From Methanoculleus sp. (GTDB taxonomy: Archaea > Halobacteriota > Methanomicrobia > Methanomicrobiales > Methanoculleaceae): a stretch of 64,000 nt of DNA. How positions within the stretch are numbered: position 1 is the stretch's first letter; each line of letters opens with the position of its first letter. The translations under genes and the position numbers were made by a program. Positions 24,292-42,564 of the stretch are shown here, piece by piece. The notes under the pieces were generated by a model. It did not search any database. It worked only from the letters and a program-made list of their open reading frames with translations, and was not told where the DNA came from. The stretch is taken from assembly GCF_020696975.1 (NCBI RefSeq), contig NZ_JAJGBK010000032.1, forward strand, positions 124,001-188,000, given 5' to 3'.

Positions 24292-25494
24292 ATGAACTGC
24301 AAAAGGCTATGCATCATCCCGTTCACAATCTGCCTCCTCCTCTTCCCGGGAGCCGCAGCCGCGGCCGAGTTCCTCCGGCTCACCGATACCCCCGAGTTGG
24401 ACGGATTTCCCTTCTGGTCTCCCGACGGAGAGCGGATCGCGTACATCTCGTTCGACCCCGGCACCGGGGATATGACCATCCGCGTGATGGCCGCCGACGG
24501 GACCGCCGGGACGGACCTGACTCCGGGCGGGTCGCGGGACTTCTTCGTCACGAACCCCTGGTCCCCCGACGGAAAGGAGATCTTATTTATATCCGACAGA
24601 TCGGGCTCATACGACCTCTGGGTGATGAACGCCGATGGAACCGGTCCGGTGCAGGTGACCAACGGGACAAACGTCGTCCCCTGGCTGCATGGGCCGCGGG
24701 GCTACGAGGCGGAGTGGAGCCCGGACGGCAGGATGATCGCGTATACGTCGTGCCTCTTCGGAGGCGCGGATATCAGGGAGGCAACTGCCGATGAGCATGG
24801 CGGTCGCGCTTCGATGAATATCAATCTTTCAGAGATCCGTAGAGAGGCCGACATCTGGGTCGTGAACCCGGATGGCAGCGGAGGACGGGGGCTTACTTCC
24901 TCGGGCGATGCCCTGATGCCCCGATGGCATCCGGAGGGCGACAGGATCGCCTACCTCTCCCGGGCCTCCGGCACGGCCACGATCCGGGTGATGAACCTCG
25001 ATGGGTCGGGCGGGTTGCAGATAACTTCCGATGAGGAGGATGTCCTGCAGTTCTCCTGGTCTCCCGACGGACGCGAGATCCTCTATGCCGCGCTGACTCA
25101 CGGCCCCATCTCCGAGAACGTCTCGTTTGGGATCCGGGTCGTGAGCGCCGATGGAAGCAACATGCGCCGTCTGACCTCGGAAAACGTCGACAGCACACCG
25201 GTCTGGCACCCGGGCGGGGAGAAGATCGCGTTCTATTCGCAGTCCCGTCCCCCCTCTTCAGTCTGGGTGATGGACGACGAAGGCTCAGATCTGCAATCTC
25301 TTGCTCCGAGATACGACTTTCGGATGCACCAGTGGTCTCCCGACGGGCAGACGATTGCGGTGAGCGATGGAGATGATATTTATGTGGTGGTTCTGGACGA
25401 CCCGGCCGTTGCTGCGCCGGGTTTCGGGATACTCTCTGTTGTCGCGGCGCTTTCTATCTGTGCGCTTGCACTGCGGGCCGGGAGGCAGTCGTGA
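24292..25494 (+). CDS. Secreted TolB-like seven-bladed beta-propeller with PGF-CTERM anchor
   Basis: A 400-residue protein: signal peptide (residues 1-24, LLLFPGAAAAA), then seven repeats each carrying W-[SH]-P-x-G-[ERKQ]-x-I-[AL] (WSPDGERIAYIS, WSPDGKEILFIS, WSPDGRMIAYTS, WHPEGDRIAYLS, WSPDGREILYAA, WHPGGEKIAFYS, WSPDGQTIAVSD). This is a PD40/TolB propeller. The C-terminus APGFGILSVVAALSICALA plus RAGRQS is a PGF-CTERM signal: PGF, helix, basic tail. Archaeosortase A would remove it and attach the protein to lipid. The partner it binds is unknown. It follows the cysteine-rich gene by 11 bases. Confidence 0.85.
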   Translation: MNCKRLCIIPFTICLLLFPGAAAAAEFLRLTDTPELDGFPFWSPDGERIAYISFDPGTGDMTIRVMAADGTAGTDLTPGGSRDFFVTNPWSPDGKEILFISDRSGSYDLWVMNADGTGPVQVTNGTNVVPWLHGPRGYEAEWSPDGRMIAYTSCLFGGADIREATADEHGGRASMNINLSEIRREADIWVVNPDGSGGRGLTSSGDALMPRWHPEGDRIAYLSRASGTATIRVMNLDGSGGLQITSDEEDVLQFSWSPDGREILYAALTHGPISENVSFGIRVVSADGSNMRRLTSENVDSTPVWHPGGEKIAFYSQSRPPSSVWVMDDEGSDLQSLAPRYDFRMHQWSPDGQTIAVSDGDDIYVVVLDDPAVAAPGFGILSVVAALSICALALRAGRQS

Positions 25495-25728
25495 CTGTAT
25501 CAGAACGCCCCAGAGAGGCGGTGCTGAGGTCCGGCACCGGCAGGATAGTCGCGGTGGCCTCAATCGCGAAGAACTACAAGCGCGATCCCATCATCTCTTC
25601 TCCCGCACAGTCCACATCGACTACGCCCGGAGGTGAAGCCTGGAGTTGTTCGGGATCGGCGACGTGGTGCGCCCCCGGTTCCCGGCCCGAGGCGGCTTTG
25701 TCCGGGCTCAGAATCGATCGGAGAGGTC

Positions 25729-25774
25729 TGATGTGTAGACGATCGTGACAGAAAGCCCTTATAGAAGAACGTCG
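25729..25774 (+). promoter_or_regulatory. P-box promoter of the propeptide-like gene pair
   Basis: TGATGT (25729-25734), GTAGACGATCGT, GACAGAA, CTTATAG and ACGTCG (25769-25774), arms 40 bases apart. The leader to the ATG at 25835 is about 60 bases. The stretch 25495-25728 holds no gene; ACGCCCGGAGG near 25625 may be a remnant of a leader hairpin. Confidence 0.78.
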
Positions 25775-25834
25775 ACCTCTCCCGCGTGGGGACCGGGTTC
25801 GGCCGCCGGCGTCCCGCCACCGTGAGGAGACACC

Positions 25835-26440
25835 ATGAATCATACCCATATCGGAGGCATCGCCCTCCTGGTCTCTGTGATCGCCGTAGCGGCAATCGTG
25901 CTGGGTTCAGGCCCCCAGGGATCCGGGTCTCCGGCCGGGGACGAGAGCGGCCCGCCCCTGGTCGTCGGCGACGCGATGACCGTTATCGTCGCGGACGTCG
26001 CATCGCTCTCCGACCTTGCGGCCGCCGGGATCCCGGCCCCGGAGGAGCTGGATATCCCGAGGGGCATCACCCGCTACGATATCGTGACGTTCGACCACGC
26101 CGCCGTCAACGGCCGGGTGCGGGAGGGGGCACTTTCGCTCCGGATCCGCGGTGAGGACTACCGGGCCGGACTGGAGAGGATGACCTTCGATCAGATCGAC
26201 GACGGCATCGACTCCTACGAAGGGACGATTCCCGGCGCCGGGGGAAGCGACGTCCTCCTGACGACCTCGGAGAACACCCTCACCGGGAGCGTGACGCTCG
26301 GCGGGGAGACGTTCTGGATCAGGCCTGTCGAGCCGCGTATGCGTGCCGAAGGGTCGGCGTCCCCCCTGCACATGATATACAGTTCGCGGGATCTCGAGCA
26401 GCAGGTGCCTGTCCTGGTGGACCGGGGGCCGGGGCTATGA
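25835..26440 (+). CDS. Secreted protein resembling a metalloprotease propeptide, without a protease domain
   Basis: A 201-residue protein with an N-terminal helix (residues 6-25). The segment FDHAAVNGRVREGALSLRI...YEGTIPG, then SDVLLTTSENTLTGSVTLGGETFWIRPVEPR and LHMIYSSRDL resembles propeptides of reprolysin-like zinc proteases (V-x-L-x-x-x-x-G-x-x-G-x-V-x-x-x-G-x-x-Y-x-I-E-P, then HVLYR). A zinc-binding HExxH is absent and the gene ends after the propeptide, with its stop overlapping the next ATG. It could act as a free inhibitor or be a relic. The assignment is by motif and is tentative. Confidence 0.62.
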   Translation: MNHTHIGGIALLVSVIAVAAIVLGSGPQGSGSPAGDESGPPLVVGDAMTVIVADVASLSDLAAAGIPAPEELDIPRGITRYDIVTFDHAAVNGRVREGALSLRIRGEDYRAGLERMTFDQIDDGIDSYEGTIPGAGGSDVLLTTSENTLTGSVTLGGETFWIRPVEPRMRAEGSASPLHMIYSSRDLEQQVPVLVDRGPGL

Positions 26441-27309
26441 CGAGGGGCCTTCTGATCGGCGCACTTGCTCTTGCGGTCGGCTGCATACTGGTTCTCAACC
26501 CGTTGAACGCGGGTGCGGGGAGATTCTCTCTCACCGCAGAGTTCCCGGAGGTCCCGGACTCCTGCACGCTCTACCGGGTCGTCCCCGCCACCCTCACGGC
26601 CGGGGAGGTTGCGAACCGGCTCGGGCTCTCCGGGGAGGTGAGCGAGCGATCCGGTGAGTTTTATCTCATCGACACCACAAAGGACCCGGAGGAGCGGCTC
26701 ACGGTGTACGCAGACTCCGGCGCCGTGGCCTACCACATCCCCGACCGGGAACTGCCGGCCGAGATGACCCGGCAGCCGGACCTCCCGGCGGATGCGGAGG
26801 CGGAAGCAATCGCTCTTGCCTTCCTGGAGAAGACCGGCATGGCGTCGTCGGATGCCCGGGTCGTGGAGATCGCCGTCAACCAGAGGCACGAGGTCTGGAG
26901 TTCAGGCGGCGGTGAACCTGAGGTGTCGTATGATGTGACGCTCGCTGTCCGGTTCGGCCGGTCGCTCGATGGGCTGCCGGTCTACGGCGATGAGTTCGCG
27001 GTCATCCTGGGCGCCGGCGGCGATGTTGTCGGGCTCGTGAAGACCTGGCGGGAGGTGGAGCCGGCCGGAGACTTCGCTTTAAGGCCCCCGGAGGAGGCGT
27101 ATGCGGACCTCCTTGCATCACGGACCATCGGCCCTGCGGCCTACGACCGCGTCACGATCGAGAGTATCACCCTCGGCTACTGGATGGAGCCTCGCGGTGT
27201 CGTGCAGGATACGGTCCGGCCGGTCTACGCGTTCACCGGGACCGCGGTCCGGGACGGCGCTTTGGAGCCGTATGTTGGGTACGTCTCCGCCGCGAGGGAT
27301 GGGACATGA
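26437..27309 (+). CDS. Hypothetical secreted protein
   Basis: A 290-residue protein with a signal-anchor (residues 4-21). Its external part contains EAIALAFLEKTGM, VSYDVTLAVRFGRSLDGLPVYGDEFAVILGAGGDVVGLVKTW and a C-terminal VRPVYAFTG. The G-L-P-V-x-G-D-x-x-x-V-x-x-x-x-G-x-V element is seen in PepSY/YycI-like exterior domains, but I cannot assign a family with confidence. It starts on the ATGA overlap with the propeptide-like gene, so the two products are made together and may interact. Confidence 0.65.
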   Translation: MTRGLLIGALALAVGCILVLNPLNAGAGRFSLTAEFPEVPDSCTLYRVVPATLTAGEVANRLGLSGEVSERSGEFYLIDTTKDPEERLTVYADSGAVAYHIPDRELPAEMTRQPDLPADAEAEAIALAFLEKTGMASSDARVVEIAVNQRHEVWSSGGGEPEVSYDVTLAVRFGRSLDGLPVYGDEFAVILGAGGDVVGLVKTWREVEPAGDFALRPPEEAYADLLASRTIGPAAYDRVTIESITLGYWMEPRGVVQDTVRPVYAFTGTAVRDGALEPYVGYVSAARDGT

Positions 27310-27453
27310 CGCGGACGTTCCCTCTTCTCCTCGCGGCATCACGCAAAGGATAACACCCTTTTTGCAGGGATCAGATCTCGGGTGGGCTCCGGCCAGTCGG
27401 CGCCTCCCCCTGCAGCAATTCATTAATACCCCTCCGACAGAATACCAGTATCC

Positions 27454-27747
27454 ATGCAGTCCCGGGAAGAAGTCTTCGCGACTCTGCAACGGCTCAAAGG
27501 TGAGCTCTTTACGCGGTTCTCGGTCAGCCGGATCGGTATCAACGGAGCGGTCGCACGCGGCGAGCAGACCGAGGCAAGCGATATCGACATCCTTGTTGAG
27601 TTCTCCCGGCCGGTCGGTTTCTTCACCTTAATCGAACTCGAAGAATACCTCTCGCTTTGCCTCGGCGCCCCTGTCGACCTGGTTACGCCCGATGCTCTGA
27701 AACCGCTTGTCCGTGAGCAGGTAGCCGCCGAGGTCGCCTATGCCTGA
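27454..27747 (+). CDS. MNT-type minimal nucleotidyltransferase, MntA-like antitoxin
   Basis: A 97-residue protein of the pol-beta superfamily. In MntA/HepT pairs the nucleotidyltransferase AMPylates and silences a HEPN RNase toxin. The active-site block is GINGAVARGEQTEASDIDILVEF: the Asp pair D43xD45 is kept, but the usual G-S of the GSxxRGE loop is G-A (residues 31-32). The C-terminal KPLVREQVAAEVAYA is usual. ATTAATACC at 27423-27431 is about 28 bases before the ATG, implying a leaderless mRNA. The reading frame of the partner overlaps by eight bases. Confidence 0.85.
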   Translation: MQSREEVFATLQRLKGELFTRFSVSRIGINGAVARGEQTEASDIDILVEFSRPVGFFTLIELEEYLSLCLGAPVDLVTPDALKPLVREQVAAEVAYA

Positions 27748-27976
27748 ACGATCGGATATCCGCCTCCTCTGCAGCGACATAACCGAGGCCATCGAGCGCA
27801 TCCTCCTCCCGGTGACCGCCGCGAGAACCTTGTTCCTGCCGAAACTCACACAGGCGGCGAAAGAGGACGCCACCTTTGCCGTGGGGCTGACGGCGAGATC
27901 CGTGCCCCCCGGCTCCCCTAAACCCTCTTCGCTATCGTCTCGATCGCCTCGATCAGCGTCTGCTGCTGCGGCTTGA
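27740..27976 (+). pseudogene. Truncated HEPN (HepT-like) partner
   Basis: The start MPERSDIRLLCSDITEAIERIL matches the first helix of DUF86/HEPN toxins, which then continue for about 110 residues with an R-x4-6-H RNase motif. Here the similarity fades after residue 25. A fragment of the type FLPKLTQAAKEDATFAVGL is seen, then a low-complexity serine/proline tail runs into the antisense end of the regulator at 27918. No RxxxxH is present. The toxin is therefore almost surely inactive, while the antitoxin gene remains intact. Confidence 0.6.
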
Positions 27977-28403
27977 TGATAGCGACCGGGCAGTCGGCGA
28001 TCTTCTCCACGATCGGGGCAAGGATGGGTGCGCAGATGATCCCGAGCGCCCCCTCCTTGTCGGCCCGGACCGCGGCGATGATGCACTCTTCGAGCGAGTC
28101 GGCCGCGTAGCCCCGGATATGGTACTCCTTCTCGCCGATGGGGAGGTTGCGGTTGTCGATCTCGTCGAGGAGGAACCGGGCCGCGATCACCGCGATGAAA
28201 CTCTTCTCCCGGGGCTCGAGGACGTTCACGATCCGCCGGACGGTCGAGAGGCGCGGGTCCGCCCGGCCCGACGTGAGCTTGTAGAGGGTGGCGGCCGGGA
28301 TCCCAGCCCGGTCCGCGAGGTCCCGGATACTCATATCCTGCCGGGTGAGTTCCTCCTGGAGCGCCCCGGCAAAGTCGGTCTCGAAGATTCTTCTGGAGAG
28401 CAT
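27918..28403 (-). CDS. XRE-family regulator divergent from the coenzyme M operon
   Basis: A 161-residue protein. An XRE helix-turn-helix occupies residues 14-65 (LQEELTRQDMSIRDLADRAGIPAATLYKLTSGRADPRLSTVRRIVNVL), and a C-terminal domain follows (GYAADSLEECIIAAVRADKEGALGIICAPILAPIVEKI), which may bind a small ligand. It is read away from the operon at 28505-34250 and shares a 100-base AT-rich control region with it, so it probably controls coenzyme M genes. CATATATT around 28419-28426 is about 20-25 bases before the ATG, indicating a leaderless transcript. Confidence 0.82.
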   Translation of the reverse strand: MLSRRIFETDFAGALQEELTRQDMSIRDLADRAGIPAATLYKLTSGRADPRLSTVRRIVNVLEPREKSFIAVIAARFLLDEIDNRNLPIGEKEYHIRGYAADSLEECIIAAVRADKEGALGIICAPILAPIVEKIADCPVAIIKPQQQTLIEAIETIAKRV

Positions 28404-28504
28404 TGCTTTACTATTGTAGAATATATGAGATAAAATCTTCCTTTTATGGTTAAAAATAAACTGTAAAGAACAACTCTTATCTTACAGTGCGGCAACTGTT
28501 CTCC
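28404..28504. promoter_or_regulatory. Divergent control region between the XRE gene and the coenzyme M operon
   Basis: AT-rich intergenic segment. CTTTAC (28406-28411) and GTAAAG (28463-28468) form an inverted repeat flanking the minus-strand TATA (28419-28426), and CTTACAG recurs at 28481-28487. TTAAAAATAAAC at 28450-28461 is a likely TATA/BRE for the operon. The repeats are candidate binding sites of the XRE protein. Confidence 0.5.
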
Positions 28505-29284
28505 ATGGACCCTGCACCTATCCGCGAGATCACGATCCTCCCCGGCCGGAGCCGGCAGGGCGAACCGGAGCGGTTCGACGCGATCGTCATCCGACCCGGC
28601 GACACGATATCCATCGTCGGTCCCACCGGCTCGGGGAAGAGCGCTTTCATCAACGACATCGAGGTCTTCGCCCGGAACGACACCGCGACGGGCCGGACGG
28701 TCCTCGTCAACGGCGAATTCCCTCCCGAAGAGTTCGTCCGCGACCCGGCCCACAAACCCGTCGCCCTGATCACCCAGAACACCCGGTGCCTTGCGGACCT
28801 CACGGTCACGGAGTTCCTTTCGATGCACGTCCGGTCCCGGAGGATCGAGGACGACCGCATCATCGAGAGGACGATCGCCCTCGCAAACGAGTTCACAGGA
28901 GAGGCAATCCGGCCGGACGCCCGAATGACCGCGCTCTCCGGCGGGCAGACCCGGTCGCTCCTGGTGGCCGATGCGATCATGATCGCCGCGGCGCCGATCC
29001 TCCTCCTCGACGAGGTGGAGAACGCCGGGATCTTCAAGGAACGGGTGATCGAGGTTCTCCGGACCGGGGGGAAGGCAGTCGTCTTCGTCACGCACGACCC
29101 CCTGGTCTCCCTCCTCTCCGCCCGGCGGATCGTCATGCGGGACGGGGCCGTCGAGCGGGTTATCGAGCCCGGAAATCGCGAGGACGAGGCCCTCCGGGAG
29201 GCTCTCCGTCTCGACGGCATCCTCCACGGGATGCGGGAACGGATCCGGGCGGGCGACCTTATCACGGGGTCGGTCGGCTCATGA
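28505..29284 (+). CDS. Soluble ABC-type ATPase of the coenzyme M gene cluster
   Basis: A 259-residue ATPase: Walker A GPTGSGKS (residues 39-46), Q-loop LITQN, signature LSGGQTRSL, Walker B ILLLDEVENAG and switch histidine in VFVTHD. There are no membrane helices and no adjacent permease, so it is unlikely to be a classical transporter subunit; such lone ATPases often help assemble metal or sulfur centres. ATG 28505 is preferred; GTG 28487 would overlap a possible operator. It is the first gene of a six-gene operon, and its stop overlaps the next ATG. Confidence 0.8.
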   Translation: MDPAPIREITILPGRSRQGEPERFDAIVIRPGDTISIVGPTGSGKSAFINDIEVFARNDTATGRTVLVNGEFPPEEFVRDPAHKPVALITQNTRCLADLTVTEFLSMHVRSRRIEDDRIIERTIALANEFTGEAIRPDARMTALSGGQTRSLLVADAIMIAAAPILLLDEVENAGIFKERVIEVLRTGGKAVVFVTHDPLVSLLSARRIVMRDGAVERVIEPGNREDEALREALRLDGILHGMRERIRAGDLITGSVGS

Positions 29285-29988
29285 GGCTCGCCGTCATCGC
29301 CGGGCCGCCGTCCGCCGGAAAGACCGCCGTCGTGAGACAGACCGTCCGCACTCTCACGGACCGGCACCGGATCGCCTACCTCAAGATCGATGTCGTCAGG
29401 GCGTTCGAGGACGAGGAACTCGCGGCAGAGTTCGGGATACCGACACGAAAGGTCTGCTCCGGCGACCTCTGCCCGGACCACGCCGGGGTGATGGTGATGC
29501 GGGACGCCGTCGCCTGGGCCGAGGAGGAGGGCGCCGACCTCCTCCTGGTCGAGAGTGCCGGGCTCTGCCTCCGCTGTTCGCCCTACACGACGCAAGCGCT
29601 CGGGATCGTCGTCCTCTCCGCGGTCTCGGGCACGAACACGCCCCTGAAGATGGCCGCGATGCTCGCCCACGCCGACGTCGCGGTCGTGACCCGGATCGAC
29701 CTCGTCTCCCAGGCCGAGAAGGAGGTCTTCCGGGAACGTATCCGGGAGGTGAACCCCAACCTCGATATCGTCGAGACGAACGCCGTCCAGGGGACCGGTA
29801 TGCGCTACCTCCTCCGGGCTATCGAGGACCACCCGGCAATAGCCGACCCGGATACAGTCGTCCTCCGGGGTGCGCCGCCGCTTGGGGTCTGCACCGTCTG
29901 CATCGGGAAGACCGAGATCGGGTGGCAACACCACTTCGGGGTCGTCCGGAGACTCGAGGACGCCGACTACCTCTTCCGGGGGGACTGA
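29281..29988 (+). CDS. HypB/UreG-like P-loop GTPase
   Basis: A 235-residue protein: P-loop AGPPSAGKTAVV (residues 8-19), LKIDVVRAF, ESAGLCLRCSPYT and the base-recognition motif VTRIDLVSQ (in place of NKxD/TKxD). This is the HypB/UreG/CobW-type SIMIBI class, which loads metals or cofactors into enzymes. Cysteine pairs (VCSGDLC, LCLRC, VCTVC) could hold a metal or Fe-S centre. ATGA overlap with the ATPase shows coupling. In this operon it may mature the Fe-S proteins encoded downstream. Confidence 0.82.
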   Translation: MRLAVIAGPPSAGKTAVVRQTVRTLTDRHRIAYLKIDVVRAFEDEELAAEFGIPTRKVCSGDLCPDHAGVMVMRDAVAWAEEEGADLLLVESAGLCLRCSPYTTQALGIVVLSAVSGTNTPLKMAAMLAHADVAVVTRIDLVSQAEKEVFRERIREVNPNLDIVETNAVQGTGMRYLLRAIEDHPAIADPDTVVLRGAPPLGVCTVCIGKTEIGWQHHFGVVRRLEDADYLFRGD

Positions 29989-29991
29989 CCC

Positions 29992-30612
29992 GTGACGTGG
30001 AGGCCGCCCGGGAAGGACTGCGGGGCCTGTGGATCTCCAACCTGCGAGGCATTCATCGCCCTGGTCCGGCGGGGAGGAAAGAGCCTTCCCGACTGTGTCT
30101 TCTACCCCGCCGGGACCGCCGCCTCCACCGGGTCCGAAGGCGATGCCTGCTATACCGGCCGGGATGTCCTCGGCGGCGAGTACGACTTCATCCTCAACCC
30201 CCTCCCCGGCGAGGTCTCGGCCCGGAAGATCATCCTCCCCTTCCGGCCGGACCTCGTAGAGAAGTGGGAGATTGCTTCCGGGGATATCGTCGTCGGGAGG
30301 CCGGCCGGCGCGGGCTGCCCGGTCCAGCACGTCCTCGCTGTCCTCCAGGCAAATCCGGTGACCGGCCTTCTCACCTGCCTGGTCGTCGGGCCGCGTGCCT
30401 CCCGGGGCGGAGGGTTTAAGGAGATCGAGGCGTATCACATCGTTGGTTTCGAGGGGATTGCCCGGACGGTGCGGCGCGAACCTACCTTCGGGATGCGGCA
30501 ACGGTTCCTGCCCGGCCACTGCATGATGAACCTCACGCATACGGGCGTCGTGAATATGATTCTCGCACAGTCCTCGGGTCTCCGCGTGCGGGTGGAGGAT
30601 ATCAGGTTATGA
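29992..30612 (+). CDS. Fe-S cluster-binding domain protein
   Basis: A 206-residue protein. The N-terminus holds C10-x2-C13-x4-C18-x16-C35 (KDCGACGSPTCEAF...LPDCVFY), the classical four-cysteine 4Fe-4S motif seen in corrinoid/CO dehydrogenase proteins and RnfB. The remainder (VVGRPAGAGCPVQHVLAVL, TGLLTCLVVGPRA) has no family I can name. GTG 29992 is four bases after the GTPase stop. The last bases overlap the DUF39 gene as ATGA, so electron or sulfur transfer to that protein is plausible. Confidence 0.78.
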   Translation: MTWRPPGKDCGACGSPTCEAFIALVRRGGKSLPDCVFYPAGTAASTGSEGDACYTGRDVLGGEYDFILNPLPGEVSARKIILPFRPDLVEKWEIASGDIVVGRPAGAGCPVQHVLAVLQANPVTGLLTCLVVGPRASRGGGFKEIEAYHIVGFEGIARTVRREPTFGMRQRFLPGHCMMNLTHTGVVNMILAQSSGLRVRVEDIRL

Positions 30613-31850
30613 AGACGATGAGAGAGATCGACCAAAAGATCCGGAACGGTTCGGCGGTCGTCTACACCGCCGCGGAGTTCAAACAGCTCATCCGCGAGGG
30701 TGGGGAGGTCACGGCCGCAGACGTCGACGTGGTCACCACCGGGACGTGCGGGGTGATGTCGGGGACCGCAGCGATCCTCTCGGTTCCGGTCGCAGCGCCC
30801 GGGACATTCGAGCGTGCTGAACGGGCCTGGCTCAACGGGGTCCCCTGCATGCCCGGCCCCTGCCCGAACGAGCGCCTCGGGCTCGTCGACATGATCGTCT
30901 CCGGGACCGCCCACGCCGGCGCCGGCTACGGCGGCGGCCACCTCTTCCGCGATATCGTCGAGGGCCGGGAGATCGAGGTGGTGGTGGAGGCTGCCGATCG
31001 GTCGATCGAGGCGAAGGTGACCCTTGATGACTTCTCCTACGCCCGGCTCTTCACGACCCGGAGCGCTTACCGGAACTACACTGCCTACCTGAACACCCAG
31101 CCGACCCGGGTGACGACGATCTTCTCCGTCACCGGGCTCCAGGGGCCCTGCCGGGAGGCCTCGGTCAGCGGGTGCGGCGAGATCAACCCGCTCGAAAACG
31201 ACCCGCTCGGGCTTGCGATCCGGGCCGGGACGCCGGTCCTCCTGAACGGCTCGGCGGGGCTCGTGACCGGGGAGGGGACCCGGAGCACGCCTTCGCGGCC
31301 GAACCTCACAGCCATCGGTGATATGGCCGGGATGCAGCCCCGCTACATGGGAGGATTCAGGACATCTGCCGGGCCGGAGTGCATCACGAGCCTCGGGATC
31401 GCGATCCCGGTCCTGGACGACCGGCAGGTGGCGGGACTCCGCGTCCTCGACGAGGAGATCGCCCTCCCGATCGCCGATATCAACACCCGGACTGTCCTCG
31501 ACGAGGCGACCTACGCCGATGTCTGGCAGCGGCCTGAGAGGGAGGTGACTTACCGCCCGGAGTGGTGCGAGGAGTGCTCGACCTGCGCTGTTGCCGCGAT
31601 CTGCCCGACGGGCGCGTTTACCCGCGGGACCGGGATCGACCGCGACCGCTGCCTCGCCTGCACCGCCTGCCTTGGTGCCTGCCAAAACGACGCCCTCGAG
31701 GCCGGCGAGGGGTCGCTCCGGGTCCGGGGGCGGAAGGTGCCGGTCACGCTCCGCCAGTCCGGCCGGACGCTCGCGGAAGACCTCTGCCGGGACTTGAAAG
31801 AGCGGGTCCTCGATTCCCGGTTCACCTTCACCGGGGGCGGGTGGCGGTGA
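30609..31850 (+). CDS. DUF39 (HcyBio) sulfur-transfer protein fused to a ferredoxin domain
   Basis: A 413-residue protein. Residues 1-310 are a DUF39 domain (EIDQKIRNGSAVVYTAAEF, TGTCGVMSGTAAILSV, CMPGPCPNERLGLVD). Residues about 315-365 hold two 4Fe-4S motifs (CEECSTCAVAAICP and CLACTACLGAC). DUF39 proteins with a ferredoxin take part in reductive sulfur insertion, converting aspartate semialdehyde to homocysteine. Within a coenzyme M operon, a parallel role is turning sulfoacetaldehyde into coenzyme M, the last step, for which the thiol-forming enzyme is the least certain. This is inference from context. ATGA/GTGA overlaps bind it to both neighbours. Confidence 0.85.
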   Translation: MKTMREIDQKIRNGSAVVYTAAEFKQLIREGGEVTAADVDVVTTGTCGVMSGTAAILSVPVAAPGTFERAERAWLNGVPCMPGPCPNERLGLVDMIVSGTAHAGAGYGGGHLFRDIVEGREIEVVVEAADRSIEAKVTLDDFSYARLFTTRSAYRNYTAYLNTQPTRVTTIFSVTGLQGPCREASVSGCGEINPLENDPLGLAIRAGTPVLLNGSAGLVTGEGTRSTPSRPNLTAIGDMAGMQPRYMGGFRTSAGPECITSLGIAIPVLDDRQVAGLRVLDEEIALPIADINTRTVLDEATYADVWQRPEREVTYRPEWCEECSTCAVAAICPTGAFTRGTGIDRDRCLACTACLGACQNDALEAGEGSLRVRGRKVPVTLRQSGRTLAEDLCRDLKERVLDSRFTFTGGGWR

Positions 31851-33136
31851 GGGAGAAGTACCTCCTCCACTGCCCGGGATGCGGCCGGCCCTTCCCGGAC
31901 CGCTACACCCTCGACTGCCCGTCGGGGTGCGACGCTCTCCTCCGGACGGTCTACGCGGAGCGCCGGCTCGTCCTTCGTGACCTCCCCGGGATCTTCCGTT
32001 ACATCGAGTGGCTCCCGGTCGAGGGCCACCTCCGGATCGATGCCGGCCCGGTCTCCTACGGTAGCGTCGCCCTCGCCCGGGAACTCGGCCTCTCCCACCT
32101 CACTGTCACCTTCTCCGGCTACTGGCCCGAGCGGGGCGGGCGGATGGAGACCTGTTCGTTCAAGGAACTCGAGGCGCAACCGACGCTCCTCCGTCTCCGG
32201 GAGAAGGGGGCCGGGGTCATCCAGGTCTCGTCGGCGGGGAACACCGCCCGGGCGTTCTGCCAGGTCTCGGGCCTGACCGGGGCACCGGTCGTGGTGGTCG
32301 TCCCGGCCTCCGCCGCCGACCGGCTCTGGACGACGGTTCCGTCCCCGAACGTCTGCCTCATCACGGTGGACGGGGACTACTCGGACTCGATCGGCTTCGG
32401 GCGGGAGGTCTGCTCCATCCCTGGTGTCGTCCCGGAGGGCGGGGCAAAGAACGTCGCCCGCCGGGACGGGATGGGGACGGTGATGCTCGATGCGGCACTG
32501 TTTTCCGGCCGGCTCCCCGACTCCTACTTCCAGGCGGTCGGGAGCGGGACCGGGGCGATTGCCGCGTGGGAAGCGGCCGAGCGGCTCATCGCCGACGGCC
32601 GGTTCGGTTCCCGTCTCCCGGAACTCCACCTCTCCCAGAACCTCCCCTTCGTCCCGATGGTCCGGGCCTGGGAGGCGGGGAGGCGGGAGATCGTGGCCGA
32701 GGATATGCCCGACGCCGAGGTATCGATCGCCCGGGTTTCTGCCGGCGTCCTGACGAACCGCCACCCGCCCTGGGGGGTCCGGGACGGGGTCTACGATGCA
32801 CTCGTGGCTTCCGGCGGCCGGATGTATGCGGTCTCTAACGACGACGCCCGATCCGCCGGGAGGCTCTTTGCCGATACCGAGGAGATCGACCTCGACCCGG
32901 CGGCGGCCGTCGCGGTCGCCTCGCTCGTCCGTGCGGCGGAGGAAGGGTTGGTCAGCCCGGAGGAGCACATCCTCCTGAACGTGACCGGCGGCGGCTACGA
33001 GCGTGCGGCCGAGGACCTCGACCGCTACCCGGTCGAGCCCTATCTCCGGGTCCGGGCCGATGAGGCCTTCGAGGGGGATCTCCGGGATGCCGTCAGAGCC
33101 TGGATCGCGGAGCAGGGGGTAGCTATCCGTGCGTGA
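31847..33136 (+). CDS. Cysteate synthase
   Basis: A 429-residue PLP enzyme derived from threonine synthase. It makes cysteate from phosphoserine and sulfite, the first step of coenzyme M synthesis in Methanosarcinales and Methanomicrobiales. The N-terminal YLLHCPGCGRPFPDRYTLDCPSGC hairpin and the PLP lysine in TCSFKELEAQPT (about K106) match this group. ISVSSAGN-type phosphate loop appears as VIQVSSAGNTARAF. GTG 31847 overlaps the upstream stop. Threonine synthase itself is the main alternative, but the neighbouring sulfopyruvate decarboxylase argues for cysteate synthase. Confidence 0.88.
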   Translation: MREKYLLHCPGCGRPFPDRYTLDCPSGCDALLRTVYAERRLVLRDLPGIFRYIEWLPVEGHLRIDAGPVSYGSVALARELGLSHLTVTFSGYWPERGGRMETCSFKELEAQPTLLRLREKGAGVIQVSSAGNTARAFCQVSGLTGAPVVVVVPASAADRLWTTVPSPNVCLITVDGDYSDSIGFGREVCSIPGVVPEGGAKNVARRDGMGTVMLDAALFSGRLPDSYFQAVGSGTGAIAAWEAAERLIADGRFGSRLPELHLSQNLPFVPMVRAWEAGRREIVAEDMPDAEVSIARVSAGVLTNRHPPWGVRDGVYDALVASGGRMYAVSNDDARSAGRLFADTEEIDLDPAAAVAVASLVRAAEEGLVSPEEHILLNVTGGGYERAAEDLDRYPVEPYLRVRADEAFEGDLRDAVRAWIAEQGVAIRA

Positions 33137-34250
33137 AGGGTGTGTCCTCGACCGGCTCGCCGCCCTCGGGGTCGATACCGTGGCGTCGCTCCCCTGCGAC
33201 CGGACGCAGGAGTTCTGCGCCCTGATTCCCGAACGATTTCGTGCGGTCAACCTCACCCGGGAGGAGGACGGCGTCGGGATCTCGGCAGGACTCGTTATGG
33301 CCGGGAGGCGGCCGGTCCTTCACATGCAGAGTTCGGGGCTCGGCAACTCCTTGAACGCTATCATGTCCCTCACCGTCACCTTCGGCCTCCCCCTCCCCGT
33401 CCTCGCGAGCTGGCGGGGCGTCTACCGGGAGGCGATCCCGGCCCAGGTGCCGTTCAACCAGGCGGTCCCGGACGTTCTCGCGGCGCTCAACATCCCGTAT
33501 ACGATCATCCGCGACCCTTCGGATGAGGGATTGATCGATGAGGTCGTCCAGGACGCCTACGATTCCATGCGGCCGCACGTGGGGCTGATCCTCCCCTCGT
33601 TCTGGGAGGGAACGGAGGAGGCCTGCCCGGCGGAGCAGCCGCCCCCGCCCCGGGCCCGCGAGTCGGCGCTCGAGTACCGGCGAACCTTCCGGGAACCGGT
33701 GATGGCCCGGAACGACGCAATCCGGGTGATTGCGGGGGGTCTTGACGACGAGGCGGCCGTCGCAAACATCGGGGTCCCCGCAAAAGAGCTCTACGCGGCA
33801 AACGATCGGGACTTAAACTTCTACATGCTCGGGAGTTACACCCAGGCGACGCCGATCGGGCTCGGGCTCGCCATCGGGACCGACCGGGACGTCGTCGTCC
33901 TCGACGGCGACGGGAGCCTCCTTGGGACCGCGGTCCTCCCGGTGGTGGCGGCGGAGGTCCCGGAGAACCTCACGATCGTCTGCCTGGACAACGGGGCCTT
34001 CGGGAGCACAGGAAACCAGCCCACCCCGGCATCCGGCCTCGTGGACATGGAACTCCTCGCCCGTGCTGCCGGGATCCGGCGGACGTGCAAGGTGCAGGAC
34101 GAAGAAGAACTCGCGGAGGCATGGGAGAGCCGGGGCCGGGGGCCGAACTTTATTCATGTGGTGTTAAGACCCGGGAACGCGTCAGTCCCGAATATCCCGC
34201 TCGCCCCGGCCGAGATCCGGGAGCGGTTTGTGCGGGCGATTAGGGGGTGA
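33129..34250 (+). CDS. comDE: Sulfopyruvate decarboxylase, ComD-ComE fusion
   Basis: A 373-residue thiamine-diphosphate enzyme that converts sulfopyruvate to sulfoacetaldehyde. The N-terminal half (LTREEDGVGISAGLVMAGRRPVLHMQSSGLGNSLNA) is the ComD-like Pyr domain with the catalytic Glu in REEDGVGI. The C-terminal half has the TPP motif VVVLDGDGSLLGT...CLDNGAFGSTGNQ, the ComE-like PP domain. Methanococci encode the two halves separately. It overlaps the cysteate synthase gene by eight bases and ends the operon. An aminotransferase for cysteate to sulfopyruvate is not in the window, presumably supplied by a general aspartate aminotransferase. Confidence 0.92.
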   Translation: MREGCVLDRLAALGVDTVASLPCDRTQEFCALIPERFRAVNLTREEDGVGISAGLVMAGRRPVLHMQSSGLGNSLNAIMSLTVTFGLPLPVLASWRGVYREAIPAQVPFNQAVPDVLAALNIPYTIIRDPSDEGLIDEVVQDAYDSMRPHVGLILPSFWEGTEEACPAEQPPPPRARESALEYRRTFREPVMARNDAIRVIAGGLDDEAAVANIGVPAKELYAANDRDLNFYMLGSYTQATPIGLGLAIGTDRDVVVLDGDGSLLGTAVLPVVAAEVPENLTIVCLDNGAFGSTGNQPTPASGLVDMELLARAAGIRRTCKVQDEEELAEAWESRGRGPNFIHVVLRPGNASVPNIPLAPAEIRERFVRAIRG

Positions 34251-34388
34251 CCCCAACACCTTTTTCTCTCTCGTGTCGCGCGGCATCCGAGGCGTTCTCC
34301 GGATGGCTGGATCTTTCTCTGGATTACGGATATTCGGCGCTTTTTCCCCGATGACGCTTCTATTCCATTGGTTTTGGCAACCACTCTC

Positions 34389-34434
34389 AGACGTGTAAAG
34401 AGATGGGACAGAATGTATATATGAGCATACGTTT
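34389..34434 (+). promoter_or_regulatory. P-box promoter (AT-rich subtype) of 34462
   Basis: AGACGT (34389-34394), GTAAAGAGATGG, GACAGAA, TATATAT and ACGTTT (34429-34434), arms 40 bases apart. It shares GTAAAG and GGGACAGAA with copies 35461 and 36861. The ATG is 28 bases after the second arm. Confidence 0.75.
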
Positions 34435-34461
34435 AGATGGTTGTGTTGAGAGGAGTCACTT

Positions 34462-34683
34462 ATGGAAGAGAGCAGATCCTATCAACCCTTATGCTATCAA
34501 CTCTTGAGAGCCCTGTCGGTACCAGTTATTGCCCTAGCGTTTTTCCCCCTATGGATGGTTGTGTCTTCATTGAAAATATGGATTGAGCCTGATCCGCGGC
34601 TTTTGATTGAAGCGATTTATGCTTCGGCGTTGACATTGTCATTTATTTATTTTGGTCTTAAACTGCGAAGCATATGTGAGTGA
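34462..34683 (+). CDS. Small two-helix membrane protein
   Basis: A 73-residue protein with helices at about 14-34 (ALSVPVIALAFFPLWMVVSSL) and 45-65. The N-terminal half YQLLRALSVPV aligns with a decayed copy at 36487-36717 (YQFLRTLSLPI). GAGAGGAGTCACTT precedes the ATG. No family is recognised. It lies in an AT-rich accessory stretch immediately after the coenzyme M operon. Confidence 0.6.
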   Translation: MEESRSYQPLCYQLLRALSVPVIALAFFPLWMVVSSLKIWIEPDPRLLIEAIYASALTLSFIYFGLKLRSICE

Positions 34684-35460
34684 TCTTACCCAAGGGAACC
34701 TTGAATGTCTCCTGAAAGGGGATGTCTGGATGGCAATGGAGAATTTAACTGTTCCGGGAACAAGATCGTCTTTCCCCGAGTTCTATCGAACGCCGGGGTT
34801 ACTATAGGAATATCAAGTTCCAATAGGTGACCTCTAATAACACATTTTATGGCGGGCTGTAAGATTCGCTCATCCATGATGATACATTGGCGAGGTGTAA
34901 ATGGAGGCCGACTATATATAGAGGATATATGGGGTTCAGTTGCAGTTCCCGGTGATTGTATTTTGTCGTAGGTTTTCTCTTTGCGAACAGATTGTTTGCC
35001 GTTACCCCATCTTCAATGATTTCCTAACCTTGATCCCGCTGTGGAGTATGGGTGAGAGGAGCCTCTGTTCTACTCCCCTCATGAACATTCTCGGCCTTGC
35101 TCCTTCTCGGGGAAGCATGGGGATGAGGATGCAAAGCAGAGAGTAGTCATCATCGAGAAAGCGATCGATACCGTTTTTGTCGTTGCGATCTGCCAGATCT
35201 CTTTACGTGTCCCTTGTGTCTTCCGTCGACCAGATCTTCTGTTCTCTGTCCTTGTTGTCGTCGGCTTCTTCTTGGGCACGTATCATCTCCATCGAGGGCA
35301 GCGAGCGCGCATCCGCTTTGGACACCTGATTGTCTTTTTAGCGCATCCCATAATCTGCTTGCTGGATAGAAGTCGGAGTCCCTTCTGTGAGAATGAGTTG
35401 TCTCCAGTGCCTTCCTTCCTCACGGAGGGATCAATTTCTTCATTTTCGTGAAAATTCCTT
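34684..35460 (+). other. Gene-poor AT-rich stretch with probable gene remnants
   Basis: No intact gene is seen. A degenerate P-box lies at 34892-34937 and is followed by a start-like ATG at 34940 that opens MQFPVIVFCRRFSLCEQIV without further coding character. A second frame is open from 35116 to a TGA at 35449-35451 and reads like part of a membrane protein (LLFSVLVVVGFFLGTYHL) but has no start codon. Both look like decayed members of the small membrane-protein set in this region. Confidence 0.4.
34892..34937 (+). promoter_or_regulatory. Degenerate P-box
   Basis: CGAGGT, GTAAATGGAGGCC, GACTATATATAG: the GTAAA and TATA parts stand at the proper spacing, but GACAGAA and the second arm are lost. 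It precedes a non-coding remnant, consistent with decay after loss of its gene. Confidence 0.4.
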
Positions 35461-35506
35461 GGACGTGTAAATGAATGGGACAGAGTTTATAAATAAACTT
35501 ACGCCC
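35461..35506 (+). promoter_or_regulatory. P-box promoter (AT-rich subtype) of 35693
   Basis: GGACGT (35461-35466), GTAAATGAATGG, GACAGAG, TTTATAAAT and a partial arm ACGCCC (35501-35506) at 40 bases. It leads into structured leader copy 5. Confidence 0.72.
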
Positions 35507-35692
35507 AGGTCACTGTGTGGATACCCAAAGCGGCGTCCGCAAAAGTTCGTGGGGTCCCTCCATCCACGGTTGACGCCCGGATGAAGAATCCCACAAGCCC
35601 GGAGGCTATTGGGATATGTGCTCTTTCAGTACTTGAAAGTATGCCTCTCCTGCCTCTGGGTAACGATAAAAGCAGAAAGAGAGTGAAGAAAG
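35507..35692 (+). promoter_or_regulatory. Structured 5' leader RNA, copy 5
   Basis: Hairpin 2: GTGGGG (35549-35554) with CCCAC (35590-35594), enclosing CATCC/GGATG (35561-35565 with 35579-35583) and the same loop ACGGTTGACGCCC as copy 4. Hairpin 3: GCCCGGAGGC (35597-35606) with GCCTCTGGG (35652-35660; one change keeps a wobble pair), enclosing CTTTC/GAAAG (35623-35627 with 35635-35639). Hairpin 1 is weak in this copy. Confidence 0.72.
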
Positions 35693-36472
35693 ATGGATAT
35701 GTTTAGTTTCAGAAGAGTTTGCAGCCTCCTTGTGATAATGCTTGTTGCAAGCGCTGTACTCGTTGCATCTGCTAGTGCAGAAGTTGATGTGACAAATGAG
35801 CAAATGACGATCGTAGAAAAAGAACAAACAGTCCATTTATCTGTCAATGAGGCCACACCGTGGAATTCAAAGGCGGCGGCAACCATTGAAGAGCAGATTG
35901 ACAACATACTAGCGAATGCAATGGTTTTAACACGCAATGGCCTTTCGACATACAACGTTCAGTACGTTAGAGTTGATACACTTCAGACGCCAGGCGATGA
36001 ATATTCATCGGCATCAGGGTCATACAGGCTTTACAAAGTAAATGAACAGGATCCAAATTATGACTATTACATCCTCTGGATGAAAGCAACGGGACTGAAT
36101 AATGAAGATGGCTTGATACCTTCATATCTTCGGGAAGTAAAACCTGGTGTTTCGCTGAGCAGGTATAGCGATGTGATTACTGACTGGGAGCCTATAACAG
36201 ACACTGCAACGAGTTCTGGAGTTACGATCACGGCAAGCCTTGATGTTAGTCACGGAGGTGTGACTGCGGGAATATCCGAGACTTTCGATCTCCAGCAGGG
36301 TCATGTTGGACCTGATGAGCTTAGTACATCGGGTGGCGGCTATTTCAAGCCCCACTGGAATGGGAACTATCAGGGATCTCAGGGACTGATCGGAGGAGCG
36401 GAGTTCAGAGTTCCTCAAGGAACAGGTTATGACTACGATCTCAGCCTGAGCGTCACTGGAGCCGGATATTAA
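35693..36472 (+). CDS. Hypothetical secreted protein with structured 5' leader
   Basis: A 259-residue protein: signal peptide (residues 1-29, ending SASA), a domain containing TIVEKEQTVHLSVNEATPWNSKAAATIEEQIDNIL, then a beta-rich, glycine-rich C-terminal half (ITASLDVSHGGVTAGISETFDL, LSTSGGGYFKPHWNGNYQG). I recognise no family. The final third, low in charged residues, could be a surface-exposed beta structure. Composition is AT-rich. It is the only gene of its unit; the next frame at 36487 is a remnant. Confidence 0.68.
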   Translation: MDMFSFRRVCSLLVIMLVASAVLVASASAEVDVTNEQMTIVEKEQTVHLSVNEATPWNSKAAATIEEQIDNILANAMVLTRNGLSTYNVQYVRVDTLQTPGDEYSSASGSYRLYKVNEQDPNYDYYILWMKATGLNNEDGLIPSYLREVKPGVSLSRYSDVITDWEPITDTATSSGVTITASLDVSHGGVTAGISETFDLQQGHVGPDELSTSGGGYFKPHWNGNYQGSQGLIGGAEFRVPQGTGYDYDLSLSVTGAGY

Positions 36473-36486
36473 TCCGGTCCACCTTT

Positions 36487-36717
36487 TTGGAGGTGCCTAC
36501 ATACACGAAAATAAATCTTGAATATCAGTTTTTGAGAACCCTGTCACTACCGATTGTTATCATAACTTTTTCCTCTGTGGATAGAACATGTTCAACGGAT
36601 TTTACTCAAGAGCAATTTCTGCATCTTCTGTTATATAATCCTTCAGACTTGGGACGACAAGGCACAATCATCGATGTGTTCGTTGTTAATGCTATTGGCC
36701 CCACGCAGATTCCCTAA
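36487..36717 (+). pseudogene. Decayed copy of the small membrane protein at 34462
   Basis: The first 20 codons (EYQFLRTLSLPIVIITF) align at both DNA and protein level with 34462-34683 (CYQLLRALSVPVIALAF). After TTTTTCC a loss of about two bases shifts the frame, so the second helix is not encoded and the rest reads as random sequence. There is no ATG or P-box directly upstream. The following 36718-36860 holds nothing recognisable. Confidence 0.5.
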
Positions 36718-36860
36718 ATTCTTGCCGCGTTAATATGTAGTTTTCACTTTTTTCGGTGCAATCTCTGATAATGGGTGATTATCCGGAGATACATGTACCC
36801 TCGGAGTTGAGATCTGTGTATCATCTGCACCTGCTGGAATTGTCATGTTCTGAACATCCA

Positions 36861-36906
36861 AAATGCGTAAAGAAATGGGACAGAATCTTTATGCAGAGTT
36901 TCTTCG
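36861..36906 (+). promoter_or_regulatory. P-box promoter (AT-rich subtype) of P component 2
   Basis: AAATGC in the first-arm position, GTAAAGAAATGG, GACAGAA and CTTTATG (TATA). The arms are poorly kept, but GTAAAG and GACAGAA have the standard spacing of twelve bases. The ATG at 36928 lies about 40 bases after the TATA box. Confidence 0.65.
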
Positions 36907-36927
36907 AAGTCTTATCGGTGGATTTTG

Positions 36928-37356
36928 ATGAAGTTCAACCGCCTTATTGGGCTCCTGGCCATCTTTGTTCTTATCATACCGATGGTTTCGGCAGGCAGTA
37001 CCGGAAGTGAAAGAAATGAGGCCGTGTTAGGCCTCTCGCAAGCAGATGAGTTTACAACCCGTGGAGGATATATAATCACACAGGGGGAGACTCATTCTCA
37101 CACTTGCAGTGTATCAGCCGGTATATCTGTATTGCAGGTCGACTTGAATTGGTTTACTCCCGATTACTCCCTGAAACTAGATGTCTACAGGCCCGACGGG
37201 AGCCTGTACGGTTCTTACCACGATGACGATGACGGTTGTGAACCTGATGGGCAGATCCGTTTCGGGATATCCAATCCTGTGCCTGGGTTCTGGAACTTTA
37301 AGGTCTATGGAGAGCGTGTGACTGGGATTCAACTGTATGCATTAAACTATTTCTGA
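36928..37356 (+). CDS. Secreted PPC-like domain protein, P component 2
   Basis: A 142-residue protein with a signal peptide (residues 1-22, LLAIFVLIIPMVSA). The mature part SVLQVDLNWFTPDYSLKLDVYRPDGS, SYHDDDDG and GFWNFKVYGERV is a PPC-like beta domain, paralogous to 12398-12835. ATG 36928 follows TTG 36925; the ATG is preferred. It is followed after 39 bases by the R component on the same strand, the same order as in module 1. Confidence 0.72.
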   Translation: MKFNRLIGLLAIFVLIIPMVSAGSTGSERNEAVLGLSQADEFTTRGGYIITQGETHSHTCSVSAGISVLQVDLNWFTPDYSLKLDVYRPDGSLYGSYHDDDDGCEPDGQIRFGISNPVPGFWNFKVYGERVTGIQLYALNYF

Positions 37357-39425: not shown

Positions 39426-40178
39426 ATGCGCATCACCCGGCCGGCTCTCCTCCTTACCGCCCTCGCCCTCTTCCTCGCCGCCTACCTGGTGGTCCGGTTC
39501 GACGACCCGGCGGTCCCGCCCGCCGTCCCGATAATCTTCCTGGTCGGCCTCGCCCTCCCTTCCTACATCGCCCTCGTCCGCTGGCTCGGTCCCCTCCGCG
39601 GCATCGCGCTCCTCCTCCTTTTGAGCCTCCTCCCGCTCGCCGTCGAGGCCTACGCCGTCGCGACCGGCGTCCCGTATGGCGGGTTTACCTACTCGGCCGA
39701 CCTCGGCTACCGGGTCTTCGGCCTCGTCCCCTGGACGGTCGCCTTCGCCTACCTCCCGATGCTCCTTGGCGCCGTCACCCTCGCCGCAGCCGCCGCCGGG
39801 ACCGCGTGGGGCCGGCTGGTCCCGGCCGGGGTCCTCGTCCTCCTCCTCGTCGACCTCGTCATCGACCCGGCGGTCGTCCACGCCGGGCTCTGGGTCTGGC
39901 CCGACGGCGGGGCCTACTACGGCGTCCCGGCCTCGAACTTCGTGGGCTGGGTCCTGACCGGCACGGTCTATGTCGCCCTCTTCCGGTTCATCGCGGGCGA
40001 TCGAGCGATCCCGGGGACGGTGGCGGCAAGCCTCCTCCTCATCCTCGCGTTCTGGACCGGCTACCTCGCCCGGAACGATCTTGCCGTACCGGCACTCCTC
40101 GGGGCGGCGCTCGCCCTTGCAACCCTGCCGGTCGCCTTCGGTGGTGATAGCACAGCATCGCCGCCGGCTCTCCCGTGA
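39426..40178 (+). CDS. CruF-like carotenoid hydratase family membrane protein
   Basis: A 250-residue protein with about seven membrane helices. The motifs EAYAVATGVPYGGFTYS and DLVIDPAVVHAGLWVWPDGGAYYGVPASNFVGW are diagnostic of the DUF422/CruF family. In haloarchaea CruF hydrates bisanhydrobacterioruberin to bacterioruberin. Its place beside crtI, crtB and an elongase-like prenyltransferase supports a role in carotenoid synthesis. TATA of the next gene lies inside its last codons, but co-expression is likely. Confidence 0.85.
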   Translation: MRITRPALLLTALALFLAAYLVVRFDDPAVPPAVPIIFLVGLALPSYIALVRWLGPLRGIALLLLLSLLPLAVEAYAVATGVPYGGFTYSADLGYRVFGLVPWTVAFAYLPMLLGAVTLAAAAAGTAWGRLVPAGVLVLLLVDLVIDPAVVHAGLWVWPDGGAYYGVPASNFVGWVLTGTVYVALFRFIAGDRAIPGTVAASLLLILAFWTGYLARNDLAVPALLGAALALATLPVAFGGDSTASPPALP

Positions 40179-40189
40179 CGATCCCGGAC

Positions 40190-40206: not shown

Positions 40207-40252
40207 ACCTGTGTCTTCCTGCACCCGTTTTCCATTCAGGAAGGGGGGAATT

Positions 40253-41728: not shown

Positions 41729-41738
41729 GGTGCGCCCC

Positions 41739-42563: not shown

Positions 42564-42564
42564 C

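What the first reader, a model, noticed from the sequence alone, without database searches (positions are those of the whole stretch)
28505..34250. Six-gene coenzyme M operon with candidate enzymes for the last, sulfur-inserting step
Cysteate synthase and ComDE supply sulfoacetaldehyde. The four genes before them, joined by overlaps, encode a DUF39 protein fused to ferredoxin, an Fe-S protein, a HypB-like GTPase and a soluble ABC-type ATPase. DUF39-ferredoxin proteins are known for reductive thiol formation from an aldehyde (homocysteine synthesis). By analogy this one may convert sulfoacetaldehyde to coenzyme M, with the GTPase and ATPase serving cluster assembly or energy-dependent reduction.
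Basis: partly seen in the sequence, partly recalled or inferred. Interest (0 to 1): 0.65.

Follow-up and report, generated by a model that had tools for sequence, protein, structure and literature searches.

The report
Coenzyme M operon with known synthase

Summary
In detail: six tightly packed genes (28505-34250, +) encode a soluble ABC-type ATPase, a HypB-like GTPase, an Fe-S protein, a DUF39 (COG1900/HcyBio)-ferredoxin fusion, cysteate synthase and fused ComDE, with a divergent regulator upstream. The DUF39 protein is methanogenesis marker 16 (TIGR03287, 497 bits, cut-off 364). It is published as coenzyme M synthase, ComF: E. coli reconstitution (White 2019, cited in PMC12068725) and genetics in Methanosarcina acetivorans (PMC12068725). 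It lies outside the homocysteine-forming clade (bootstrap 100), and the genome has a separate CBS-domain homologue. So the core proposal is right but known. PMC12068725 also shows the three other genes near coenzyme M genes, role unknown. New here: they are a conserved block that tracks the sulfite-fixing enzyme, not ComF. They accompany cysteate synthase in 33 of 34 archaeal genomes with the block and persist in complete genomes without ComF. In Bacillota they accompany ComA in 16 of 17 genomes and sit directly beside it in three loci. In other bacteria they sit with a NifS cysteine desulfurase and an Rrf2 regulator, with neither enzyme. They are therefore unlikely to be dedicated ComF helpers. 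A role in sulfite or sulfur supply is a testable lead, not a result.

The parts
27918..28403 (-). divergent helix-turn-helix regulator (161 aa), probable regulator of the operon
   Evidence: PF01381 34 bits; homologues keep this divergent position in many Methanomicrobiales operons and in some operons that lack the three accessory genes
28404..28504 (.). intergenic control region between the regulator and the operon
   Evidence: aligned in 8 relatives: A+T-rich, with conserved blocks but no clear operator called; no Rfam match within 25000-37000
28505..29284 (+). soluble ABC-type ATPase (accessory gene 1); no membrane partner in the operon
   Evidence: PF00005 49 bits; Walker A GPTGSGKS, LSGGQ, Walker B DE followed by ENAGI, and VTHDP conserved in 33 homologues; the solved chains shown by phmmer are generic ABC transporter ATPases, with no SufC in the list
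29281..29988 (+). HypB/CobW-type GTPase (accessory gene 2) with a TRID/TKxD G4 motif
   Evidence: PF02492 55 bits; TIGR00073 hypB 73 bits, below its cut-off of 121; nearest solved relative HypB 2hf8, E 1e-8
29470..29481 (+). GTPase motif CPDH, part of a putative metal or Fe-S site
   Evidence: invariant in alignment A1; Cys, Asp and His at 99-100% in 148 homologues, as are the later C-x-R-C and CxxC
29566..29577 (+). GTPase motif CLRC
   Evidence: both Cys and Arg 100% conserved in 148 homologues
29890..29901 (+). GTPase C-terminal motif CTVC (CxxC)
   Evidence: both Cys 100% conserved in 148 homologues
29992..30612 (+). Fe-S protein (accessory gene 3; called COG2000 in PMC12068725): N-terminal 4-Cys Fe-S domain plus an unrecognised beta-rich C-terminal domain
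   Evidence: PF04060 39 bits; AlphaFold2 pLDDT 89.8, pTM 0.82; only the first ~32 residues match solved proteins (corrinoid Fe-S protein 4djd_C, 47% identity, 0.6 A); the rest has no match at E <= 0.001; C109, H113, C177, H183, R103, R138, R169, R200, E202 invariant in 45 sequences
30609..31850 (+). ComF / methanogenesis marker 16: COG1900 (HcyBio) domain fused to a two-cluster ferredoxin domain
   Evidence: TIGR03287 497 bits, cut-off 364; PF01837 324 bits; ComF clade bootstrap 100 against L-ASST; eight ferredoxin Cys conserved
31554..31688 (+). ferredoxin segment of ComF (residues ~316-360, eight Cys: C320, C323, C326, C332, C348, C351, C354, C358)
   Evidence: 98-100% conserved in the ComF set
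31847..33136 (+). cysteate synthase: O-phosphoserine + sulfite to cysteate
   Evidence: TIGR03844 660 bits, cut-off 325; GTG start overlapping the ComF stop
33129..34250 (+). sulfopyruvate decarboxylase, alpha and beta fused (ComDE): sulfopyruvate to sulfoacetaldehyde
   Evidence: TIGR03845 211 bits and TIGR03846 248 bits, both over cut-off

Best explanation
The unit is a 'type 2' coenzyme M operon. Cysteate synthase adds sulfite to O-phosphoserine; a general aminotransferase (not in the operon) makes sulfopyruvate; ComDE decarboxylates it to sulfoacetaldehyde; and the DUF39-ferredoxin protein (ComF, methanogenesis marker 16) replaces the aldehyde with a thiol, using sulfide-level sulfur and electrons from its own ferredoxin domain. 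That last step is published for orthologues and is inferred here by membership. The ATPase-GTPase-Fe-S trio is a separate, widely conserved three-protein module, recruited to the operon because of the sulfite-dependent entry step rather than because ComF needs it. My best guess (inference, about 0.3) is that it supplies or handles sulfite-level sulfur, or matures a metal centre needed for that, with the GTPase as metal or cluster chaperone and the ATPase and Fe-S protein as an energised redox or assembly unit. Confidence by part: ComF assignment about 0.95; trio linked to the sulfite-fixing step rather than to ComF about 0.65; specific sulfite-supply role about 0.3.
For: Operon anatomy. TIGR03287 membership at 497 bits. 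ComF clade of 66 sequences separated from 21 L-ASST sequences with bootstrap 100 and a 1.33 substitutions/site branch. ComF lacks the L-ASST essential Cys (Ser51 here) and carries the ComF-type C85 and C189. The genome has a distinct L-ASST with CBS domains next to a NIL-ferredoxin frame. Published genetics and E. coli reconstitution for orthologues. Trio: 33 of 34 trio genomes have cysteate synthase (Fisher p 1e-14); among ComF genomes the trio occurs only with cysteate synthase (31 of 58 against 0 of 11, p 7e-4); among cysteate synthase genomes it is independent of ComF (p 1.0). The gene order is reshuffled while the trio stays beside cysteate synthase in several families. One-contig genomes with trio, cysteate synthase and ComDE but no ComF. 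In Bacillota 16 of 17 trio genomes have ComA, the other sulfite-fixing enzyme, against 60 of 183 others (p 8e-7), and ComA sits directly upstream of the trio in L177 (with ComB), L180 and L239. The source of sulfite for coenzyme M is described as unclear in PMC6286981.
Against: Many genomes with cysteate synthase (29 of 62) lack the trio, so it is not essential for the sulfite step. In Omnitrophota, Chloroflexi, Acidobacteria and others the trio sits with a NifS cysteine desulfurase and an Rrf2 regulator, and the representatives tested have no ComA and no cysteate synthase CapA over cut-off, so the sulfite link is not universal. Genomes are not independent samples. A Methanosarcina species (L169) has the trio beside ComF with no cysteate synthase nearby. 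Sulfite-reductase-like genes are nearly universal among the methanogens sampled, so that test said nothing. No biochemical data exist for the trio.
Confidence: 0.85

Rival explanations
1. The trio is a general sulfur-mobilising or Fe-S (or metal) cluster assembly unit: the GTPase chaperones a metal, the Fe-S protein is scaffold or electron donor, the ABC ATPase drives transfer. Methanogens placed it in the coenzyme M operon to mature Fe-S or metal proteins there, including ComF, without a specific link to sulfite.
For: In many bacteria the block is Rrf2 regulator - ATPase - GTPase - NifS cysteine desulfurase - Fe-S protein, often with cysteine or methionine genes. All three proteins carry invariant Cys, His or nucleotide-binding motifs. 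The GTPase belongs to the metallochaperone superfamily.
Against: It tracks cysteate synthase and ComA, neither of which is known as an Fe-S enzyme, more closely than ComF, which is one. No SufB, SufD or NifU partner was recognised among the clustered neighbours, and the ATPase does not preferentially match SufC.
Confidence: 0.35
2. One reading: the trio is dedicated to ComF, inserting its metal centre or driving its low-potential reduction.
For: In Methanomicrobiales the trio is directly upstream of ComF with overlapping genes; some Methanosarcina have trio plus ComF with no cysteate synthase nearby.
Against: 38 of 69 ComF genomes have no trio; genomes without ComF keep it; 13 of 20 trio genomes tested outside the methanogens have no DUF39 protein. 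An archaeal ComF alone made coenzyme M in E. coli (White 2019, cited in PMC12068725). In several families the trio sits beside cysteate synthase and away from ComF.
Confidence: 0.13
3. The DUF39 protein is a second homocysteine-forming enzyme and the last coenzyme M step is uncatalysed or done by L-ASST.
For: L-ASST appears to compensate for loss of ComF at high sulfide (PMC12068725). Genomes without ComF that have cysteate synthase and ComDE suggest the last step can be done otherwise.
Against: Separate clade with bootstrap 100; different conserved Cys pattern; co-operonic with coenzyme M genes; the orthologue deletion is a coenzyme M auxotroph without sulfide.
Confidence: 0.03

Closest known systems
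ComF / methanogenesis marker 16 (TIGR03287, COG1900d), M. acetivorans MA3299 and M. jannaschii MJ1681
   Same: Domain order, family score, ferredoxin Cys, placement with cysteate synthase and ComDE
   Different: Here the trio lies directly upstream in one operon; the Methanosarcina-like genomes sampled (genus g60) have no trio near their coenzyme M genes
[quoted passage not shown] MA1821-22)
   Same: Same DUF39/HcyBio family and the same kind of chemistry (aldehyde to thiol)
   Different: L-ASST has CBS domains, a separate NIL-ferredoxin subunit and a Cys at the position that is Ser51 here; it is a separate gene in this genome
ATPase, Ni2+-binding GTPase and COG2000 genes drawn next to coenzyme M genes in PMC12068725 Fig 2B
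   Same: Apparently the same three genes, with role stated as unknown
   Different: Shown here to be a fixed block that tracks the sulfite-fixing enzyme and to be widespread in bacteria that have no ComF
HypB / UreG / CobW GTPases
   Same: G3E GTPase family and a Cys/His site in the G domain
   Different: Below the HypB cut-off; extra invariant C-x-R-C and C-terminal CxxC; TRID/TKxD in place of NKxD; partnered with an ABC ATPase and an Fe-S protein
Corrinoid Fe-S protein N-terminal Fe-S domain (PF04060)
   Same: First ~32 residues of the Fe-S protein superpose at 0.6 A
   Different: The C-terminal domain has no recognised solved relative and no corrinoid-binding domain

Membership tests
ComF (methanogenesis marker 16) | TIGR03287 score above curated cut-off | tested here: met
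   497 bits against 364
ComF (methanogenesis marker 16) | COG1900 domain fused to a ferredoxin domain with eight Cys | tested here: met
ComF (methanogenesis marker 16) | groups with ComF and not with L-ASST; ComF-type Cys pattern | tested here: met
   bootstrap 100; C85 and C189 present, L-ASST Cys position is Ser51
ComF (methanogenesis marker 16) | converts sulfoacetaldehyde to coenzyme M | not testable with these tools
   shown for orthologues only (PMC12068725)
L-ASST (homocysteine-forming DUF39 enzyme) | CBS domains, NIL-ferredoxin partner and essential Cys54 | tested here: not met
   no CBS hit in Pfam; Ser at the Cys54 column; the genome's other DUF39 gene has these features
Cysteate synthase | TIGR03844 above cut-off | tested here: met
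   660 bits against 325
HypB hydrogenase nickel GTPase | TIGR00073 above cut-off | tested here: not met
   73 bits against 121
HypB hydrogenase nickel GTPase | binds nickel or another metal | not testable with these tools
   conserved Cys/His motifs only
SUF/SMS Fe-S assembly | SufB (or SmsB) partner of the ABC ATPase | tested here: inconclusive
   no SufB recognised among the clustered trio neighbours, but neighbours were read, not searched with a SufB profile
ABC transporter | membrane permease in the operon | tested here: not met
   none of the six operon genes is a permease

The most novel reading that the evidence does not exclude
The ATPase-GTPase-Fe-S trio is an undescribed, widely distributed sulfur module that supplies or activates sulfite-level sulfur (from sulfide, or from NifS persulfide in bacteria) for sulfonate-forming enzymes, which would give a candidate for the unknown source of sulfite in coenzyme M synthesis.
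Probability: 0.2. Interest if true: 0.8.

Novelty: already known. Interest (0 to 1): 0.37.

Why it matters
Showing that they follow the sulfite-fixing enzyme in two domains of life, and not the coenzyme M synthase, redirects the search for their function. It makes an open gap, where methanogens get sulfite, testable in a defined operon. The ComF-less genomes that still have cysteate synthase and ComDE are natural tests of the proposed L-ASST backup route.

Tried and rejected
(1) DUF39 protein as homocysteine synthase: rejected by tree, Cys pattern and second gene. (2) Trio as ComF-dedicated helper: not supported by co-occurrence and neighbourhoods. (3) Trio as a DUF39-family helper in general: 13 of 20 trio genomes tested outside the methanogens have no DUF39 gene. 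(4) Fold search for the Fe-S protein's C-terminal domain and for ComF: no match at E <= 0.001; the short N-terminal Fe-S domain matched by probability and identity but not E-value. (5) Anti-correlation of trio with small sulfite reductases as alternative sulfite source: uninformative because NIR_SIR genes are in nearly all relevant genomes. (6) Bacterial CapA-type cysteate synthase in trio bacteria: none over cut-off. (7) RNA elements near the operon: none at Rfam gathering thresholds in 25000-37000. (8) Fe-S protein on plasmids: none. (10) Literature search for the trio found only the PMC12068725 figure legend among held papers.

Full report
OBSERVATION. Six genes lie on the + strand between 28505 and 34250, each overlapping or nearly touching the next. 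Their families are clear: ABC-type ATPase, HypB/CobW-type GTPase, PF04060 Fe-S protein, DUF39/HcyBio protein with ferredoxin domain, cysteate synthase, fused ComDE. The only details to correct are that the GTPase and Fe-S genes are separated by 3 bases rather than overlapping, and that cysteate synthase starts at the GTG at 31847. A divergent helix-turn-helix gene (27918-28403, -) lies upstream and is kept in that position in many relatives. The genome is Methanoculleus-like: the closest named GTPase relatives (87-95% identity) are mainly Methanoculleus.

WHAT THE DUF39 PROTEIN IS. It scores 497 bits against TIGR03287, methanogenesis marker 16 (cut-off 364). [quoted passage not shown] acetivorans: the deletion strain grows poorly without coenzyme M and is an auxotroph when sulfide is absent, and the authors cite a 2019 report that the M. 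jannaschii orthologue makes coenzyme M from sulfoacetaldehyde in E. coli. A maximum-likelihood tree of 66 ComF and 21 L-ASST sequences separates them with bootstrap 100 and a long branch, the window protein being inside ComF. The genome has two DUF39 genes; the other has CBS domains by sequence reading and a NIL-ferredoxin frame beside it, as in L-ASST. The essential L-ASST Cys is Ser51 here, while C85 and C189, the ComF-type cysteines, are present. An AlphaFold2 model of ComF is confident (pLDDT 92.6) but has no solved structural relative at E <= 0.001.

THE THREE OTHER GENES. PMC12068725 draws an ATPase, a GTPase and a COG2000 Fe-S gene next to coenzyme M genes and says their role is unknown. 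I asked which gene they follow. In 148 Halobacteriota genomes ComF (over cut-off) is in 69, cysteate synthase in 62 and the trio in 34. In the loci fetched the three genes form one block in the order ATPase-GTPase-Fe-S, with one partial locus at a contig edge. Of 34 trio genomes 33 have cysteate synthase; the exception is a 70% complete genome. Among ComF genomes the trio occurs only where cysteate synthase is present (31 of 58, against 0 of 11); among cysteate synthase genomes it is independent of ComF. Gene orders differ (trio-ComF-CS-ComDE, CS-trio-ComDE, CS-trio with ComF elsewhere), while the trio stays beside cysteate synthase in most of them; in some genomes it lies apart. The one-contig genomes G056 and Methanoregula sp. 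SKADARSKE-2 (L161) have trio, cysteate synthase and ComDE but only one DUF39 gene, which scores like L-ASST. These counts treat related genomes as independent, so the p-values are optimistic.

OUTSIDE METHANOGENS. Nearly all carry the ATPase and Fe-S genes beside it. In 17 of 45 such loci a NifS-type cysteine desulfurase lies in or beside the block, and in 12 an Rrf2 regulator is present. In one Bacteroidales locus the block is followed by APS kinase, CysD and CysN. In Peptococcaceae-type loci L177, L180 and L239 ComA, the enzyme that adds sulfite to phosphoenolpyruvate, is directly upstream, in L177 with ComB. In 200 Bacillota genomes 17 have the trio-type GTPase; 16 of these have ComA against 60 of the other 183. 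A second GTPase-ATPase subfamily lacks this link (2 of 12). Of 20 trio genomes tested outside the methanogens, 13 have no DUF39 protein and 9 have no ComA, so neither link is universal.

ANATOMY OF THE TRIO. The GTPase family has a CPDH, C-x-R-C and C-terminal CxxC conserved at 99-100% in 148 sequences and scores below the HypB cut-off. The Fe-S protein has an N-terminal 4-Cys domain like that of the corrinoid Fe-S protein, and a confident beta-rich C-terminal domain with invariant Cys, His and Arg and no solved relative. The ATPase has the ABC motifs but no permease in the operon.

MECHANISM. Shown for orthologues: cysteate synthase, ComDE and ComF act in coenzyme M synthesis. Shown here: the trio is a conserved block, tied to sulfite-fixing enzymes in two phyla and found with cysteine desulfurase in others, and not tied to ComF. 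Inferred: it works on the supply or activation of sulfur for those enzymes, or on maturing a metal centre they depend on. The source of sulfite for coenzyme M is described as unclear in PMC6286981, so sulfite supply is an attractive but unproven reading. A general cluster-assembly role is about as likely.

VERDICT. The finding is real and correctly interpreted in its main point, but that point is already known.

Noticed in passing
window 27918-28403 (-) and homologous positions in L120, L081, L073, L066: A divergent HTH gene is conserved next to coenzyme M operons, also where the trio is absent; a probable coenzyme M regulator.
   Followed up: partly
L161, L126 (G056), L153, L156: Methanoregula-type genomes carry trio, cysteate synthase and ComDE but no ComF gene beside them; two of the genomes are single contigs and have only an L-ASST-type DUF39 gene, so their last coenzyme M step must be done another way.
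   Followed up: partly
genome G003 (same genus, one contig): No ComF, cysteate synthase or trio-type GTPase over threshold: possibly a coenzyme M auxotroph or scavenger.
   Followed up: no
G000:C11:1707-2384 (L243): A second GTPase of the same superfamily in this genome belongs to a subfamily paired with an ABC ATPase but no Fe-S gene, often near an SBP_bac_6-type binding protein.
   Followed up: partly
L169 / G369 (Methanosarcina sp. 2.H.T.1A.6): Two ComF-type DUF39 genes in one genome, besides an L-ASST type; a trio lies beside a ComF with no cysteate synthase nearby.
   Followed up: no
L159, L163, L166: Records titled Nanohalarchaeota, Bacilli and Nitrospirae carry methanogen-like coenzyme M operons; most likely mis-binned contigs.
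   Followed up: no
window 39426-43416 (+): Four adjacent genes read like a carotenoid set (integral membrane protein, phytoene desaturase, phytoene synthase, UbiA-type prenyltransferase) in a methanogen; judged from the translations only.
   Followed up: no
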